Assembly (NCBI RefSeq): GCF_023821985.2
Contig: NZ_CP098805.1
Coordinates: forward strand, 1,302,001-1,366,000
DNA: 64,000 nt
Direction: 5' to 3'
From: Dyadobacter chenhuakuii
GTDB lineage: Bacteria; Bacteroidota; Bacteroidia; Cytophagales; Spirosomataceae
In this document: positions 49,000-56,093 of the stretch, one piece after another
Layout of the letters: each line of letters opens with the position of its first letter
Numbering within the stretch: position 1 is the stretch's first letter
Translations under genes and position numbers: made by a program
The notes under the pieces: model-generated
Seen by the model: the letters and a program-made list of their open reading frames with translations, nothing else
Databases searched by the model: none
Told to the model about the DNA's origin: nothing

Positions 49000-49362
49000 A
49001 TGGAAATCCTAGGCAAAATCCTCGTCGGCCTCGTGGCGCTCGAACATCTGTACATTCTCTATATTGAAATGTTTGCCTGGGAAACCAAAGGGAAGGAAAC
49101 ATTCAAAGGATCGCTCGCTCCCGAAATGTTCAAACCCACCAAAACGCTAGCCGCCAACCAGGGACTTTACAACGGTTTCCTGGCAGCAGGCCTGATCTGG
49201 ACATTCTTCATAGAAGACCGCCAATGGGCCTTTTACATTGCCGTTTTCTTTTTGACTTGTGTAATCGCGGCGGGAATTTATGGAGCTGTAACTGCTAGCA
49301 AGAAAATCTTTTTCGTGCAGGCTTTACCAGCGATTGTGGCTTTGGTGGTGTTGCACTTTTAA
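49000..49362 (+). CDS. DUF1304 membrane protein
   Basis: A 120-residue protein of four hydrophobic helices. LVALEHLYILYIEMFAWET at the start, NQGLYNGFLAAGLIW in the middle and FFVQALPAIVALVVL at the end are the DUF1304 signature. Function unknown. It stands alone between the ThuA terminator and the toxin-antitoxin pair. Confidence 0.88.
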   Translation: MEILGKILVGLVALEHLYILYIEMFAWETKGKETFKGSLAPEMFKPTKTLAANQGLYNGFLAAGLIWTFFIEDRQWAFYIAVFFLTCVIAAGIYGAVTASKKIFFVQALPAIVALVVLHF

Positions 49363-49440
49363 TTTTATACGAATTACATTAGGCAGACACTTTTTGCTTC
49401 GAATGTTCCCTCTTGATAGTCAAATTTCATAACTTGCGTT

Positions 49441-49683
49441 ATGATGAGCTATACAGACAGACATATTGTGAAAACCTATTCAGGCTTGTTCGAAGGACTT
49501 AGTTCTTCTGGCAAAAGGGAACTGATTGAGTCACTTACAAAGTCGCTCGGTACGGAAAGTAATGAAAAGGATGAAAAGTTTTTCAAATCCTTTGGAGCCT
49601 TTTCGGCAGAAAAATCTCCGGAAGAAATTGCAGCTGAAATCAAAGCCAGCCGAAAATTTAGAAAGAAGGATCTGGGTTTCTGA
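49441..49683 (+). CDS. Antitoxin of a VapBC-type module
   Basis: An 80-residue acidic and helical protein; two ATG codons (49441, 49444). SSGKRELIESLTKSL, FGAFSAEKSPEEIAAEIKAS and RKFRKKDLGF match the pattern of small antitoxins found next to Bacteroidota PIN toxins. Its stop overlaps the toxin start in TGATG. It would bind and inhibit the toxin and repress the operon. Confidence 0.8.
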   Translation: MMSYTDRHIVKTYSGLFEGLSSSGKRELIESLTKSLGTESNEKDEKFFKSFGAFSAEKSPEEIAAEIKASRKFRKKDLGF

Positions 49684-50090
49684 TGCAATATCTGCTGGAC
49701 ACAAATATCTGCATTTTCTTCCTCCGAGGTAAGCTTAACCTTGACGAAATTATACGGTCGAAAGGCAGAGAAAACTGTTTTATCTCAGAAATCACAATCC
49801 TTGAACTCCGTTTTGGCGCGGAAAATAGTGCGAATCCTACAAAATCCCACAAGGCCGTAGATGCCTTTGTCGCTGGCCTTTCCATTATTCCAATCTTTGG
49901 TTCAATTCGCCTTTACGCAAAAGAGAAAGTCCGGCTCAGAAAAATAGGTAAGCCTATCAATGACGAGTTTGATCTATTAATTGGCGTCACCGCTATTCAA
50001 TACAAATTGGTTTTGATCACCGATAACGGAAAAGATTTTGTGCGCTTGGATGGTTTAAAAATAGAAAATTGGTTTCCGCGGAATGCCTAG
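49683..50090 (+). CDS. vapC: PIN-domain toxin, VapC type
   Basis: A 135-residue PIN-domain ribonuclease. The acidic catalytic residues are in YLLDTNICIFFL (Asp6), ITILELRFGAE (Glu), NDEFDLLIGVTAI and ITDNGKDF (Asp). VapC toxins cut tRNA or rRNA when the antitoxin is lost. It overlaps the antitoxin stop by one base. The module starts the defence-rich region. Confidence 0.93.
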   Translation: MQYLLDTNICIFFLRGKLNLDEIIRSKGRENCFISEITILELRFGAENSANPTKSHKAVDAFVAGLSIIPIFGSIRLYAKEKVRLRKIGKPINDEFDLLIGVTAIQYKLVLITDNGKDFVRLDGLKIENWFPRNA

Positions 50091-50176
50091 CAGACAGCTA
50101 AAATAACTAATCCTTGTGTGCTATAATGGTTTTAACGTGGGCGTAAACAATTACGCCGCACGTTATGATATTTCGT

Positions 50177-50587
50177 TCAAGCAAAAAAGCTAGGTTTTTG
50201 CAGGTAACCAGGCTCCCAGCTAGAATCTCTTCTGCGGAGTGAACGCGAAACCGTCAGGACTTCTTGCAAGCGTTTTTCCGGATCGCTCATCAAATCCTGG
50301 CTATGCAAATACTGGCCAATGATCTCCCACTCAAAAGAATCCTCGTGAGCATCATAAATCCCAACCGGAATTCGGTTGCCATCCGTCATCAACATCCCCA
50401 GCACCTGCTGCGCCTCTTCCTCCGACGAACATCCAACATGCTGATACTGGCCTTTTAGTGTGTAAAGCACCGAGTAACGGTTTCTTGTCAATACGTTTCC
50501 TTGCGCTTGCTTCTTATTGTCTCTGTGGGAGTTTTTTAATCTTATCATGATTTCTGTGTTTGTATCTCCGTTCCGTATGCTGTTCAT
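50177..50587 (-). CDS. Hypothetical protein
   Basis: A 136-residue soluble protein with no family recognised; a later ATG (residue 14, MIRLKNSH) is an equally good start. It has a beta-strand-rich centre (RYSVLYTLKGQYQHVGCSS) and a helical, basic C-terminus (VSRSLRRRDSSWEPGY). It is transcribed towards the PIN toxin and away from the reverse transcriptase. Confidence 0.55.
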   Translation of the reverse strand: MNSIRNGDTNTEIMIRLKNSHRDNKKQAQGNVLTRNRYSVLYTLKGQYQHVGCSSEEEAQQVLGMLMTDGNRIPVGIYDAHEDSFEWEIIGQYLHSQDLMSDPEKRLQEVLTVSRSLRRRDSSWEPGYLQKPSFFA

Positions 50588-50953
50588 TTGTTTGTTGTAA
50601 AAGTTATAAATGAACGGAGATGTTTAAAGTTTCGAGACGGCTGTATTGGTCGCTCAAAGTTATAAACGCAGGTTGTGTGTCAATAGTTTAGAAGAATTGG
50701 TGTGGAGGTGGAAGTTCTTCTGATGTTGAAGGTGTTTGGTGGAATAATGCAATTCTTTGTTGCAAGGGTTGTATGGCTTGAAGATGGAAACCAGAAATAG
50801 AAAGAGGCAGTAACAATATTAGAAAACACAATACGATGTTCGGGTAATAAGCATAGCCGAAATCTGTAATGAAAGTAAAAGAAAAGACAAACCTGCTTCT
50901 TAGAAAAGACAAACTTATGCCACCCTTCCACTATCTAATTTGAATAAATATTG
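50588..50953. other. Leader region upstream of the reverse transcriptase
   Basis: About 365 bases with no convincing ORF. A 12-base direct repeat GAAAAGACAAAC occurs at 50881-50892 and 50903-50914, 22 bases apart. Small hairpins are possible (GAAGAA/TTCTTC around 50693-50718; TGCAA/TTGCA near 50748). Several reverse-transcriptase defence systems encode a structured RNA here, so this is the place to look for one, but nothing decisive is visible. Confidence 0.45.
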
Positions 50954-52498
50954 ATGATGAAAATTGAAGATTTGCTTGCAAAAGGGTATTTTCCCAAAGA
51001 ATTGCCACCTCCGTTCAATACTGTTGATTTTGCATCAAAATATGGTCAATTGAAGCCTAGTCTAGCAGGATGTATCACAAAAGAACCGACAAGATGTATC
51101 GACTTTTCAGTGGCGAAAGTTGGTCTTGTAAGGAAGACAATTAAAATACCAAACCCAGTTCACCAAACTAGATTATGTGAGATTATTGTAGAGAATTGGG
51201 AGCAAATTGAATCAATATATAAGCTGTCAAAATTTTCTTTTAGCCGACCAAAACTGAAAGGTGATCGCGCATCAAACATAGGAAAATTCAAAAATTTTAT
51301 GAGAAGGGTGTTTTTAGAATCTTATCCCTACTCATATGAATTGAAAACTGATATTTCGAAATATTACCCATCTATCTACACTCATAGCATTCCTTGGGCT
51401 ATCCATGGAAAAAACCTCTCAAAGACAACGAAGGGCAAGTCAGATCTTCTTGGTGACAAGCTTGATACGAGCGTGAGAAATACAATGTATGGCCAAACTG
51501 TTGGAATTCCGATGGGGCCAGATACATCGCACATTATCTCCGAAATTATCGGGTGTAAAATTGATGAAGAAATAGCTAACAAATTTCCTAGTTTGAGAGG
51601 GTGCCGGTATGTCGACGATATGTACTTCTTTTTTCATAGTGAAGCAGAGGCAGAGGACGCTCTACTTAAATTGCAGCAAACGCTCAAAGTATATGAACTG
51701 CAAATAAATGCAGATAAAACTATCATAAGACAAATTCCAAGAGGCATTGAAGCTGACTGGGTTATACAATTACGTTCTTTTGAGTTTCGGGATACAGAAT
51801 TCAAGCAAAACAATGATATCATTAGTTTTTTTAGTCTTGCATTTGATCTGGCAATTAAGCTTCCGAAAGACTTTGTGCTTACGTATGCAGTTGAAAGGGT
51901 CAAAAGGCTGGTTTTGTTGTCAGATGCAAACTTTGCTCTCTTAGAGACAATGCTATTAAAAACTATCATCGCGGAGCCATCAACAATCAAAGAAGTTTTT
52001 AGGATTTTCTATTCCCACAAATCGAAAGTTCGTGTGTCTAAATTAGAGACGGTACTTTCGAGCTTTATAGAGTATCATTGCCAGAGAAGAAATGAGTATG
52101 AGCTATCTTGGGCTCTTTGGATTGCTAGAAGTTTTGAAATCGTAATTCCAGCTGAAATCGTAGCAGTGTTATCGAAAATCGATGATCCTATAAATGGTTT
52201 ACTGATACTACATCTTTTAAATCTTAAACTTATAAATCATGCGGATTTAGATTTGACTCGATTTCTTGAAAAGCTAAATGTAGAGTATTTGACGGATGAA
52301 AACTGGATCTTCACTTATGAGATTTCTTTGAAAAAATGGATCGGAAATGAATTTTCATATATAGATAAGAATCCGTATTTTAAACAATTGCGTAAAGCTA
52401 AGGTTTCGTTTTATAATGAAGACAGTCAAATAGAAGTTATTGATTTTCTCAAAAAGCAGATAGTCGAACCTGATCAGGGGGTTGAATATGGTAGCTAA
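50954..52498 (+). CDS. Reverse transcriptase, Abi/UG-type (defence-associated)
   Basis: About 514 residues (frame opens at TTG 50951, ATG at 50954 and 50957). The polymerase domain spans about 60-280: TDISKYYPSIYTHSIPW (motif A with Asp134 region), GIPMGPDTS (185-193) and RYVDDMYFF (catalytic YVDD, 220-223). There is no maturase or endonuclease domain, so it is not a group II intron enzyme; the C-terminal 230 residues are helical and repetitive, as in Abi-type reverse transcriptases. By eye I cannot name the UG/DRT subgroup. Base composition is markedly AT-rich compared with katG. It is followed by an overlapping small ORF and a membrane protein in the same frame; role in phage defence is inferred. 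Confidence 0.85.
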   Translation: MMKIEDLLAKGYFPKELPPPFNTVDFASKYGQLKPSLAGCITKEPTRCIDFSVAKVGLVRKTIKIPNPVHQTRLCEIIVENWEQIESIYKLSKFSFSRPKLKGDRASNIGKFKNFMRRVFLESYPYSYELKTDISKYYPSIYTHSIPWAIHGKNLSKTTKGKSDLLGDKLDTSVRNTMYGQTVGIPMGPDTSHIISEIIGCKIDEEIANKFPSLRGCRYVDDMYFFFHSEAEAEDALLKLQQTLKVYELQINADKTIIRQIPRGIEADWVIQLRSFEFRDTEFKQNNDIISFFSLAFDLAIKLPKDFVLTYAVERVKRLVLLSDANFALLETMLLKTIIAEPSTIKEVFRIFYSHKSKVRVSKLETVLSSFIEYHCQRRNEYELSWALWIARSFEIVIPAEIVAVLSKIDDPINGLLILHLLNLKLINHADLDLTRFLEKLNVEYLTDENWIFTYEISLKKWIGNEFSYIDKNPYFKQLRKAKVSFYNEDSQIEVIDFLKKQIVEPDQGVEYGS

Positions 52499-52651
52499 AA
52501 GAATGCAGATGATGCGCATGCACAAGCTCTCAAACTCCCTAATTCGAGTCACTCAGTGTCAGAATGGGATTACTCGACTTTACAGGACTTGTTTGGTGGT
52601 TTAGAAGATATGACAGAGGGTGATGAATTAGATATTGACTTAGACTATTAG
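52488..52651 (+). CDS. Small acidic ORF requiring a -1 frameshift
   Basis: An ATG at 52488 overlaps the reverse transcriptase stop and is preceded by AGGGGG (52477-52481 area), a good ribosome-binding site. Read directly it ends after 37 codons with an unremarkable product. A -1 slip at CTAAAAG (52495-52501) instead gives a 54-residue peptide, starting MVAKKNADDAHAQ and ending DMTEGDELDIDLDY, acidic and protein-like, stopping at TAG 52649-52651. The same codons from 52499 are in frame with the reverse transcriptase after its TAA. It could be a frameshifted gene, a readthrough tail, a sequencing slip in the A-run or a decayed gene. Confidence 0.45.
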
Positions 52652-53662
52652 TTGCTGTATGCAAATGCTGAAATGAACTCGGTTCTAGTTTTAAAACACT
52701 TAAAATTACTTGGCTACTTGGATTTTCTTCAACTTCACTACTATTTGGAAAATGAGTCTCACTCAATGGATGCCGCTGTCAAGAACAGAGCTGAGGCTGA
52801 AATAATAAGGATATTCAAGGAGACCGCGAAAATACTTGAATTAGACATAGATTTAGAGGTTGCTGCACTGGAGCCGGGCGGTATAAAGGAGATATTTAGA
52901 TTTGTAAGGAAAAAGAAAAATGCAAAGATTAGCAGCGCGATTCAAGGCTTTTTAGCAGCTATAATAAGTGGCATAATTGTGGACTTAGCTGTAAGTGGAT
53001 TGCGGAGCAATTCGCACATAGAAGAGCTTACGGTGAAAAAAACTGAGCTTGAAATCAGAAAGTTGCAAAAGGAGATCGAACTGATGGAGGATTCGCCAGA
53101 AGAAATTAATAGTAGAATTGATGATATAGTAGTTTTGATATCCCAAACCGATAAGATAAGGAGATACAAGTCTAATTTTTACTCGTCACTTCTTATTGAG
53201 AATAAGGTGACAAAGATTGGAGCTGTCGTACTCGATAGCAATTATCGGGAAATTTTTCCTGAGCTTCTAGTGACGAGAAGTGATTTTAACAAATACCTGG
53301 TGGATCAGATAGTATTGGCGCCGCTGATTTACAAAGATGTTTATGTCGAGATTGTGTCACCGGTATTGAAAACCGGCAAAATCAAATGGAAGGGTATCTA
53401 TGACTCAGAAACTATTAATTTTAATCTTCACGATGCTGAATTCAGGCAATCGGTCATTAACCGCGAAGTGAGCTTTGCAAATGGCTCCGTTATTAGGTGC
53501 GATATTGAATTTGAGCGCCAAATGGATCAGCATGGTGAAGTTAAAGTCACAAGTGTGAATGTATCAAATATAATTGAGCTTATTCAAGGCGGGCTAATTA
53601 TCGAAACAAAAAAGGGAAAGCACCGAAAAGCTGCAAAATCCCAACTTGGACTTTTTGAGTAA
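52652..53662 (+). CDS. Membrane/coiled-coil protein linked to the reverse transcriptase
   Basis: A 336-residue protein from TTG at 52652, directly after the TAG of the small ORF; an ATG at 52673 would give 329 residues. The first 100 residues are helical, then one strongly hydrophobic segment (IQGFLAAIISGIIVDLAVSGL, about 110-130), a charged coiled coil (KKTELEIRKLQKEIELMEDS, about 138-160) and a C-terminal alpha/beta part (about 185-320) ending in a basic stretch KKGKHRKAAKSQ. No family recognised. It lies in the reverse transcriptase's own reading frame and transcription unit. A membrane effector for abortive infection is a reasonable guess, not shown. Confidence 0.7.
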   Translation: MLYANAEMNSVLVLKHLKLLGYLDFLQLHYYLENESHSMDAAVKNRAEAEIIRIFKETAKILELDIDLEVAALEPGGIKEIFRFVRKKKNAKISSAIQGFLAAIISGIIVDLAVSGLRSNSHIEELTVKKTELEIRKLQKEIELMEDSPEEINSRIDDIVVLISQTDKIRRYKSNFYSSLLIENKVTKIGAVVLDSNYREIFPELLVTRSDFNKYLVDQIVLAPLIYKDVYVEIVSPVLKTGKIKWKGIYDSETINFNLHDAEFRQSVINREVSFANGSVIRCDIEFERQMDQHGEVKVTSVNVSNIIELIQGGLIIETKKGKHRKAAKSQLGLFE

Positions 53663-53665
53663 TTT

Positions 53666-54499
53666 TCAAATGTTGCTGGTTTTCATATAGCTTACCAAAT
53701 TCTTTGCAAAATTCTCAGCATCTCGTTCTGAGATCAGCTTTACTTTAATATCATCTGAGTCAATGGATAACTTATCCTGAATAAATTCATTCAACTCTCT
53801 ATGTTTTCTTGGAATCGAGGTAAGCAAAGTAACATCAATCTTCTCCTCAGCAGTAGCCAATTCCGCTAGCTTCCCAGACCATTTATAAACTTTACTCCTT
53901 ATATTCTCAACATTCTGCAAATCAAATGAAACTGGCAGATAACAATGCCAGATCTCATTCTTCCAGGCTTTGTCAAACTGAAAACTGTCGTACTTAGTTT
54001 CGACTTCGTATTCAGTTAGCTTAGCCGTGATGCCATATTCGTCGAAATACTTTTTGTATTTCTTTTTCCAAACATCTGCGTCGCTGGTTGCTGACTCGTC
54101 AGTTTCACTTTGCCATTTGGTCACTAACAATCTGTAAAGGTCTGCCAGTGATTTGTTGAAGTCCAGGTCGATGCCTTTTTTAACCTCAGTTAATGTGAGC
54201 GAACTGTCGTCGTTTGGGAGGATTGCTCTTGTAATTTCTGCTAAGTCTTCTGGCGTGGGAAAGAGTCCTGAGAATTGCAGTTTTGCTCGGGCTATTTCCT
54301 TTTCGAAGTGGCGGAGGGATTTTAGAATTGCTTTCCCATTCGCGCCGGGGAAGAATGATGTGATTCTACCATATTTGGTGATCACCTTGCAATTTAGATA
54401 TTGATCTTCAGCCGCATAGACGATCACACCGACGTTGATGAACTCGCCTGTGACACGGTCGTGAAGATATCTGATGATTTGATATTGATACTTTTTCAT
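53666..54499 (-). CDS. DUF3037 protein
   Basis: A 277-residue protein whose start (YQYQIIRYLHDRVTGEFINVGVIVYA) is the hallmark of DUF3037. The rest is mixed alpha/beta and charged. Function unknown, but DUF3037 genes regularly sit next to HipA-like kinase genes; here the ATG overlaps the kinase stop by four bases (54496-54499), so the two are coupled. It converges on the reverse-transcriptase operon with only three bases between stops. Confidence 0.85.
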   Translation of the reverse strand: MKKYQYQIIRYLHDRVTGEFINVGVIVYAAEDQYLNCKVITKYGRITSFFPGANGKAILKSLRHFEKEIARAKLQFSGLFPTPEDLAEITRAILPNDDSSLTLTEVKKGIDLDFNKSLADLYRLLVTKWQSETDESATSDADVWKKKYKKYFDEYGITAKLTEYEVETKYDSFQFDKAWKNEIWHCYLPVSFDLQNVENIRSKVYKWSGKLAELATAEEKIDVTLLTSIPRKHRELNEFIQDKLSIDSDDIKVKLISERDAENFAKNLVSYMKTSNI

Positions 54500-55317
54500 G
54501 CTAAAATTGCCTGTGCCAGTTGTTGCGCAAAGATAGTTCTATTCTCAACTATCAATGCAAGATGGTTTTTGATTGTTGTCAGGTCGTCCGAACGCCAGTT
54601 TGCAGGCAGCAGCTCATCGGCTTTTGTCCAAAAATGATCGTCCAGCTGCGTGAAGCGTTCTACGAAATCTGTGATATCAATTTGTGTTCCTTTCAGTTTC
54701 GCATAAAGAAAGTGGTTTCGCAGCATTTTCAGTTCCCAATCTCCCAACTCCCAAGGTCTAGGATTTCGGGTAAAGGATAACATCATCAGAAAGTCAAATG
54801 CAAGCTCATGATCGAAGACAAATAGATTGTTATCGGCCAATACGAGGTTTGGCTTTTCCAATCTTCGGTCGCCATTTGAAATAAACAAATCGAAAGATGT
54901 AACGTTTTCTGCTTGTGATGATTGAATGTTTGTAAGGCAGTTTTTACCAATGATTTGGGTTGTACCAGGAACATATCGTGTGCCGAAGTTGACGCCGACG
55001 CTCTCAATAAATCGTTGATGGTATTTATTTCCGCGAAGCGTTTCCACAAAATCCGTACTCACTTCAACGTACACCGGTTCGAATGCATTCAGTTGGAGTT
55101 CTAGGACAATCCACGCGCCAAGGCACTCTTTCATGACAGCCTGCGGGTAAATTCTGGGATGACCGAATGGTTTGATTACGTAGCTGTTGCGGTTTCCGCT
55201 TTCGGCGTCCATTGCCCAAATCAGCATTGGTTCCGTCGTCCCACTTGCAAAAACGTTGTGCCACTCAGTGGCGTGGACAGTTTTAACCTGATAGTTTTCG
55301 TCTGTGATTTTTGGCAT
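54496..55317 (-). CDS. HipA-like kinase, partner of DUF3037
   Basis: A 273-residue HipA-family kinase-like protein. SYVIKPFGHPR carries the ATP-binding Lys; FDLFISNGDRRLEKPNLVL is the catalytic loop (Asp, Asn, Asp-Arg, Asn) and FVFDHELAFDF holds the metal-binding Asp. The N-terminal subdomain of full HipA and a HipB-type antitoxin are missing; DUF3037 takes the neighbour position instead. HipA phosphorylates glutamyl-tRNA synthetase and induces dormancy; the target here is unknown. A toxin-antitoxin or phage-defence role is inferred from the pair and the island. Confidence 0.82.
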   Translation of the reverse strand: MPKITDENYQVKTVHATEWHNVFASGTTEPMLIWAMDAESGNRNSYVIKPFGHPRIYPQAVMKECLGAWIVLELQLNAFEPVYVEVSTDFVETLRGNKYHQRFIESVGVNFGTRYVPGTTQIIGKNCLTNIQSSQAENVTSFDLFISNGDRRLEKPNLVLADNNLFVFDHELAFDFLMMLSFTRNPRPWELGDWELKMLRNHFLYAKLKGTQIDITDFVERFTQLDDHFWTKADELLPANWRSDDLTTIKNHLALIVENRTIFAQQLAQAILA

Positions 55318-55658
55318 TCAGTAGCTGGTTGAAGGTTTTGCTACTGAAAGTTGAATTAGACTTAGAGTTACTAGTTTGATTTAAGCCGATTATCTAACGG
55401 TAATGCTAAACTGTGAGTTTGCGCAATATGTTATTCAAATATGGAATAGCGATATGCCGTTTTTGCAAAGTTTTAAAATTTTTTTACCTCCTTAAAATAT
55501 ACACAAAACTATAATTGTTTAGCATCTCATGTAAAACAATTAGCATATTACATCACACTTCTCATTTTCAAACACCTGAAAAACAGCTGCTTACAAATAA
55601 CAAAATTGTAATTGCTAATCTTTTCTGTCTTAATATTGCCTAGTAAAAATCACAAACT
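55318..55658. other. AT-rich gap before symE-like gene
   Basis: About 340 bases between the divergent HipA-like and SymE-like genes. No ORF is evident. An antisense RNA to the toxin would be expected to overlap the start of the SymE-like gene, but I could not identify a promoter for one. Confidence 0.4.
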
Positions 55659-55928
55659 ATGACACACGAAAAAAAATCCCCATCACCCACCGAGCGGCAC
55701 CTAAAAGTTTACATCAAACACGTTCCGAGAGCTTGGCATCAGTACGTGATAATGCCTGAAATCAGGCTCCGCGGCAGGTGGTTGCTGGATGCGGGGTTTG
55801 AATGTAGGGATGAGGTGACGGTGCGGTGTTTTGGAAATAAATTGGAGATTACGCTTAGTCCGGTGCCGGAGCCGGAACCTGAGCTGAATAAGAAACGGCG
55901 GGCTTCGCGCCGGGTGGTGCTTTCATAG
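55659..55928 (+). CDS. symE: SymE-family type I toxin
   Basis: An 89-residue protein with the SymE core: RHLKVYIKHVPR, PEIRLRGRWLLDAGFE and VTVRCFGNKLEITL. The fold is AbrB-like, and in E. coli SymE is an SOS-induced RNA-cutting or nucleoid-condensing toxin held down by the antisense RNA SymR. The tail is Pro/Glu then Arg-rich (KKRRASRRVVLS), which would bind nucleic acid. It closes the defence-rich island. Confidence 0.85.
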   Translation: MTHEKKSPSPTERHLKVYIKHVPRAWHQYVIMPEIRLRGRWLLDAGFECRDEVTVRCFGNKLEITLSPVPEPEPELNKKRRASRRVVLS

Positions 55929-56093
55929 GGCTTTTTATTTTTGCTTCTTTCTGAGCCAGGCTCTGGCAGGTTATTCCCCGCACCCGCTGTCGCATTCGCC
56001 CCTCCGAATCGCCGCATTCACACCGCGTTTGTTCCCATACGTTTGCTGAACTTGCACCCATCAAACAAATCTTCAACATTAACTGCAAACATC

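What the first reader, a model, noticed from the sequence alone, without database searches (positions are those of the whole stretch)
50954..53662. Reverse transcriptase, small acidic peptide and membrane/coiled-coil protein in one continuous reading frame
Seen: the Abi-type reverse transcriptase ends at TAA 52496-52498; 49 protein-like codons follow in the same frame to TAG 52649-52651; the next gene continues in the same frame from 52652. The third product has one hydrophobic segment, a coiled coil and an alpha/beta end and fits no family I know. Known: stand-alone Abi/UG reverse transcriptases (DRT systems) defend against phage, often with a partner gene. Inference: this is a three-part defence unit with an unusual translational design, or an ancestral fusion split by stops.
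Basis: partly seen in the sequence, partly recalled or inferred. Interest (0 to 1): 0.8.

Follow-up and report, generated by a model that had tools for sequence, protein, structure and literature searches.

The report
Defence reverse transcriptase with severed tail
A bacterial reverse transcriptase gene of the anti-phage DRT6 type carries a stop codon that cuts off its own acidic end, which bears a tyrosine conserved in most relatives and is the likely starting point for its DNA synthesis; the supposed small extra peptide is that severed end, and the next gene is a separate candidate defence gene found beside it in two genomes of one genus.

Summary
The frame layout is real, but it is not a three-part design. 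Part 1 is a DRT6/UG12-type reverse transcriptase: cryo-EM DRT6 (9wy8) is the best solved match by sequence and fold. Part 2, the 'acidic peptide', is the RT's own C-terminal tail: in a same-genus genome the RT frame runs without a stop into the homologous tail, and intact close relatives end in such tails. A tyrosine in the last three residues marks 102 of 113 relatives counted; by analogy with DRT3b it is the likely protein primer. TAA 52496 separates polymerase from it. Part 3 is PADLOC candidate PDC-S42, a separate gene: 10 of 11 other loci examined have no RT nearby. Its joining the RT frame is accidental. RT and S42 nevertheless form a 2.7-kb block shared with that second genome, flanks unshared. 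RT codons show past purifying selection (dN/dS about 0.05), so the stop is likely a recent lesion; the other copy has two frameshifts of its own. A truncated but working RT, or a primer split to act in trans, is not excluded.

The parts
50954..52498 (+). DRT6/UG12-type reverse transcriptase, 514 aa as encoded (ATG 50954, TAA 52496-52498); catalytic RYVDD motif present; ends ...GVEYGS
   Evidence: PADLOC Drt6 E 1.1e-168; PDB 9wy8 E 1.3e-79; relative's model matches 9wy8 at TM 0.93 by target length
52496..52498 (+). in-frame TAA that separates the RT from its tail
   Evidence: no stop at this joint in the same-genus copy L039
52499..52651 (+). severed acidic C-terminal tail of the RT, 50 codons ending ...GDELDIDLDY, then TAG
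   Evidence: homology to the L039 RT tail; tails of intact relatives
52718..53662 (+). PDC-S42 family gene, 314 aa from TTG 52718 by homology (ATG 52673 is the first ATG of the open frame): one hydrophobic segment, coiled coil, predicted OB-like C-terminal part
   Evidence: PADLOC PDC-S42 E 1.4e-91; start by alignment; model
50872..53589 (+). two-gene block shared with L039 at 73.5% DNA identity; flanks not shared
   Evidence: blastn

Best explanation
This is a two-gene block: a DRT6-type reverse transcriptase gene cut by one in-frame stop, so that its acidic end with the family's conserved C-terminal tyrosine, the likely protein primer, is severed, followed by a separate candidate defence gene of the PDC-S42 family. 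Shown here: RT identity, homology of the 50 codons to the tail of intact RTs, the stop, past purifying selection on both genes, and S42 as a gene usually found without an RT but sharing one 2.7-kb block with this RT in two genomes. Inferred: the intact kind works like DRT4 and DRT3b, as an oligomeric RT that builds DNA without an RNA template starting from a tyrosine of its own flexible tail, the product harming phage or infected cell; S42 would be a membrane-anchored partner whose predicted OB-like part may bind single-stranded nucleic acid. In this genome the recent stop likely weakens or abolishes protein-primed synthesis, although the folded enzyme is complete.
For: RT class. Tail homology and continuous frame in relatives. 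Tyr in the last three residues in 102 of 113 relatives, against 3.0% Tyr in the rest of the tails. Priming from C-terminal tail tyrosines in DRT3b (Y666, PMC13174585, passages) and implicated in DRT9 (PMC12483538, passages). dN/dS 0.05, 0.05, 0.07 over three RT pieces. The second copy is itself broken by two frameshifts. S42 without RT in 10 of 11 other loci; shared block.
Against: 11 of 113 relatives lack Tyr in the last three residues, among them L001's RT and P0024; in 12 full-length viral-contig RTs only 6 have it, 10 of 12 within the last seven. AlphaFold leaves the tail disordered, so nearness of the Tyr to the active site was not shown. AbiK primes from an N-terminal-side Tyr44 instead (PMC9508834, passages). 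That the stop is harmful is not shown: the truncated end has a Tyr at -3. dS is near saturation, so the ratios are rough.
Confidence: 0.72

Rival explanations
1. Tolerated truncation: the stop only shortens the tail, and the RT works with its new end ...GVEYGS, whose Tyr at -3 serves as primer.
For: The fold is complete: in the model of the relative P0002 confidence is high to about residue 501, and the window RT has 514. The 27 residues left after the FY anchor are short, but 8 of 113 relatives have tails as short or shorter; Tyr at -3. RT codons under strong past selection.
Against: The 27 close relatives counted have 37-113 residues there; the severed part keeps a conserved end motif, so it was used until recently.
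Confidence: 0.17
2. Sequencing or assembly error: the stop is not in the living strain.
For: It is one base triplet in an otherwise selected gene, with the tail kept in frame behind it.
Against: A substitution-type error is uncommon in a 2-contig, 99.76% complete assembly; the second copy is also damaged, which fits real loss. Reads were not available.
Confidence: 0.08
3. Three-part defence operon with the acidic peptide as its own component.
For: Three consecutive open stretches in one frame.
Against: The peptide is the RT tail in relatives; S42's frame is accidental; S42 is usually without an RT.
Confidence: 0.03

Closest known systems
DRT6 (UG12), PDB 9wy8
   Same: Best sequence match among solved structures (E 1.3e-79); the relative's model has TM 0.93 by target length; an acidic tail is aligned to 9wy8 up to residue 946 of 962 with the intact relative P0002
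   Different: Here a stop severs the tail and a PDC-S42 gene follows; a commentary lists DRT6 as single-gene (PMC13213688, part 1 of 2 read)
DRT4 (UG15)
   Same: Same class of RT with helical C-terminal domain; solved DRT4/UG15 structures rank after 9wy8
   Different: Weaker by sequence (6.6e-29); below the NCBIfam Drt4 cut-off (256.6 against 450); the Drt4-model rows L044, L045, L046, L048 form their own starred group and lack a C-terminal Tyr
Drt3b of DRT3
   Same: Near-terminal tyrosine on a C-terminal tail; there it is the primer Y666 (PMC13174585, passages)
   Different: Distant RT (PDB 9z6y E 1.7e-13); belongs to a two-RT system with ncRNA
PDC-S42 (PADLOC candidate)
   Same: Third gene matches at E 1.4e-91 over 17-324
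   Different: In 10 of 11 other loci no RT nearby, e.g. beside AbiGi in L076 or an OLD-like nuclease and a type I specificity gene in L071

Membership tests
DRT6 (UG12) | Sequence and fold closest to the solved DRT6 | tested here: met
   9wy8 first by sequence (window RT) and by fold (model of relative P0002); PADLOC Drt6 first by a small margin over Drt4 model PDLC02177 (560.3 to 553.9 bits)
DRT6 (UG12) | Catalytic Y-x-D-D motif | tested here: met
   RYVDD in the translation; D220 and D221 invariant among 81 rows
DRT6 (UG12) | C-terminal tail with near-terminal Tyr (feature described here, not a published criterion) | tested here: inconclusive
   102 of 113 relatives; in the window the tail is encoded but severed, and the product left has Tyr at -3
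DRT6 (UG12) | Hexamer, DNA synthesis, phage defence | not testable with these tools
   needs experiment
DRT4 (UG15) | NCBIfam Drt4 equivalog cut-off | tested here: not met
   256.6 bits against 450
PDC-S42 | Match to the family model over its length | tested here: met
   PDLC05016, 305.3 bits, profile 9-313 of 320
PDC-S42 | Anti-phage activity | not testable with these tools
   candidate family; no held paper names it
OB-fold ssDNA-binding proteins (S42 C-terminal part) | Clear structural match | tested here: inconclusive
LAPAL (NCBIfam NF053583) | Curated cut-off of 60 bits | tested here: not met
   49.5 bits

The most novel reading that the evidence does not exclude
A protein primer split from its polymerase: the RT ends at TAA 52496 and the acidic tail is made as its own peptide that supplies the priming tyrosine in trans, as a phage terminal protein does, with the membrane-anchored OB-fold partner S42 catching the single-stranded product.
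Probability: 0.04. Interest if true: 0.88.

Novelty: new variant of a known kind. Interest (0 to 1): 0.42.

Why it matters
It turns an apparent three-part system into a testable statement about DRT6: most relatives carry a near-terminal tyrosine on a flexible acidic tail, as DRT3b does, so the primer of DRT6 can be tested by one substitution or one deletion. The window is a natural truncation at that joint. It also ties a DRT6 RT to a PDC-S42 gene within one shared block, which gives an uncharacterised candidate defence family a partner to be tested with.

Tried and rejected
Three-part operon: rejected because the peptide is the RT tail in relatives. Ancestral fusion of RT and S42: none seen among the 120 listed of 1614 RT hits (longest 600 aa) or the 88 S42 proteins (longest 339 aa); those searches admit only 0.55-1.75 times the query length, so this is no proof. 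Associated ncRNA: no Rfam match with E up to 1 in 49000-56000; nothing beyond Rfam was searched. The overlapping ORF in another frame, 52482-52604, was not pursued. S42 fold: no PDB match at E up to 0.001 and only 7upq at E 0.33 by profile; three viral models match at E up to 7.7e-6, best a DUF6575-domain protein, function unknown. AlphaFold did not place the tail tyrosine. Whole block against plasmids: no match. RT relatives on plasmids: 209 records, 7 over 80% of the query, all below 60% identity, not followed. Literature: 0 held papers name PDC-S42, 2 name DRT6 with reverse transcriptase. The DRT4 and DRT6 structure papers (Wang 2026, Wang 2025) were not read: the first is not held, the second was seen only as a reference entry; so I cannot say whether the DRT6 primer residue is already in print. 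That UG12 is DRT6 and UG15 is DRT4 is recalled, supported in part by entry names. In some searches the L038 RT was cut about 6 residues short; its true end...SSSYF, is.

Full report
Observation. The window lies in a 6.08-Mb genome of two contigs. A genome listed as the same genus, G490, is taken to be Dyadobacter subterraneus because its contig of 1,606,113 bases has the length given for the NCBI-named proteins P0029 and P0122; so the window is inferred to be a Dyadobacter.

The reverse transcriptase. PADLOC's Drt6 model scores 560.3 bits, with the Drt4 model PDLC02177 close behind at 553.9. The NCBIfam Drt4 equivalog is under its cut-off (256.6 against 450). Among solved structures the best sequence match is 9wy8 (E 1.3e-79; UG15 6.6e-29; AbiK 9.1e-18). 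The AlphaFold model of the 71%-identical intact relative P0002 (mean pLDDT 88.8) matches 9wy8, the hexameric DRT6, first (TM 0.93 by target, 0.82 by query length). In a tree of 30 rows the window RT pairs with P0002 (100/99) inside starred groups of 4 and 10 rows; four Drt4-model rows (L044, L045, L046, L048) form their own starred group; the deep forks and the long row L047 (RT_UG14 model) are unsure.

The peptide is the RT's tail. L001 (57% identity) has one continuous RT of 546 aa with an acidic tail. In G490 the RT frame runs without a stop from the helical part into ...RGFDNMIEGDELDLDYLDY, homologous to the window's ...GGLEDMTEGDELDIDLDY. Close relatives P0004, P0005, P0006 and P0008 end ...DIDYLNYQ. 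Of the 120 RTs listed of 1614 hits, I dropped the window itself and six without the FY anchor (P0003, P0029, P0031, P0039, P0064, P0096); of the other 113, 102 have a Tyr in the last three residues and 107 in the last six, against 3.0% Tyr in the rest of the tails. These rows are related and not independent. Results against: 11 of 113 lack it in the last three, among them L001's RT (P0026) and P0024; of 12 full-length RTs in viral contigs 6 have it in the last three and 10 in the last seven, and two of those twelve have the same tail; L075's RT lacks it too. The five more distant rows L044-L048 have none at the end. The tail is predicted to be disordered (pLDDT under 50 from residue 502 of P0002).

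What the tail likely does. In DRT3b the DNA is linked to Y666 on a C-terminal tail (residues 622-667), and Y666F abolishes product and defence (PMC13174585, passages). Tail tyrosines are implicated in DRT9 (PMC12483538, passages). DRT4 primes from a conserved tyrosine, says a review (PMC13314766, passages). AbiK primes from Tyr44 (PMC9508834, passages). A commentary lists DRT6 as single-gene and DRT4-related, its product chemistry less resolved (PMC13213688, part 1 of 2). That the C-terminal Tyr of DRT6 is the primer is my inference.

The stop. It removes only the flexible tail: the confident fold of P0002 ends near residue 501, and the truncated protein has 514 residues. The 27 residues left after the FY anchor are short, but 8 of 113 relatives have as few or fewer, and the end EYGS has a Tyr at -3; the 27 close relatives counted have 37-113. 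Against G490, three RT pieces give dN/dS of 0.05, 0.05 and 0.07 with near-saturated dS, the severed tail pN 0.32 against pS 0.78, and S42 pN 0.17 against pS 0.84. So both genes were under constraint for most of their divergence, and the lesions are recent, tolerated or errors. The G490 copy is itself broken by two frameshifts. P0003 (84% identity) is open to residue 422, where its record ends for a reason I could not check. Two damaged copies would fit repeated loss of a costly RT, S42 being open in both.

Is RT + S42 a unit? For: the genes form one block, window 50872-53589 against L039 4679-7402, 73.5% identity; no other blastn match joins the window and this 12-kb locus, and four flanking proteins of L039 have no match in the window; G+C is 35.7% (RT), 40.5% (tail) and 38.2% (S42) against 45.9% for the window. 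Against: S42 has no RT nearby in 10 of 11 other loci (L040-L043, L071-L073, L076-L078; L042 and L076 have S42 at a contig end, L043 and L073 hold partial or broken S42; two further plasmid hits, H2 and H3, were not fetched). DRT6-type RTs have no S42 nearby in 4 of 5 other bacterial loci, nor in 34 viral-contig RT loci, 22 of which match only the RT core. S42 is rare: 6 of 222 family genomes and 4 of 395 phylum genomes, own genome counted in each. So the pairing is real in two genomes but not a general DRT6 feature.

Verdict. A DRT6-type RT gene with a severed tail beside a PDC-S42 gene. The most novel reading not excluded, a primer split off to act in trans, I put at about 4%.

Noticed in passing
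53666-55317 (-): A convergent pair matching PADLOC candidates PDC-M66B (DUF3037, E 2.5e-115) and PDC-M66A (HipA_2 kinase-like, E 3.2e-105), right behind S42: a second candidate defence system.
   Followed up: no
49441-50090 (+): An 80-aa ORF followed by a PIN-domain, VapC-like protein (NF047863 E 7.8e-33, below its cut-off): a likely toxin-antitoxin pair upstream of the RT.
   Followed up: no
L001:3697-4284 (+): Another DRT6-type RT is followed 33 bases on by a different 195-aa protein with hydrophobic segments, weakly like PDC-M35B (E 6.6e-10): DRT6 may pick up various membrane-protein neighbours.
   Followed up: partly
L076:1-1762 (+): In a viral contig an S42 gene is followed by an AbiGi protein (E 7.8e-56).
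   Followed up: no
L071:5312-9835 (-): An S42 gene next to an OLD-like ATPase/nuclease and a type I restriction specificity gene: a defence setting without an RT.
   Followed up: no
L039:5626-7375 (-): The same-genus RT copy lies in three frames (two frameshifts) while the S42 behind it is open.
   Followed up: partly
PADLOC models PDLC02177, PDLC02179 against PDLC02178, PDLC03752: PADLOC models all named Drt4 fall into two kinds: two score DRT6-type RTs about as high as the Drt6 model, two score the UG15-like rows best.
   Followed up: no
52718-53662 (+): NCBIfam's LAPAL family, named a putative phage structural protein, matches S42 along residues 28-303 below cut-off (49.5 of 60 bits), and a viral DUF6575-domain model shares its fold (E 3.2e-8); the structural name may not fit this group.
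   Followed up: no
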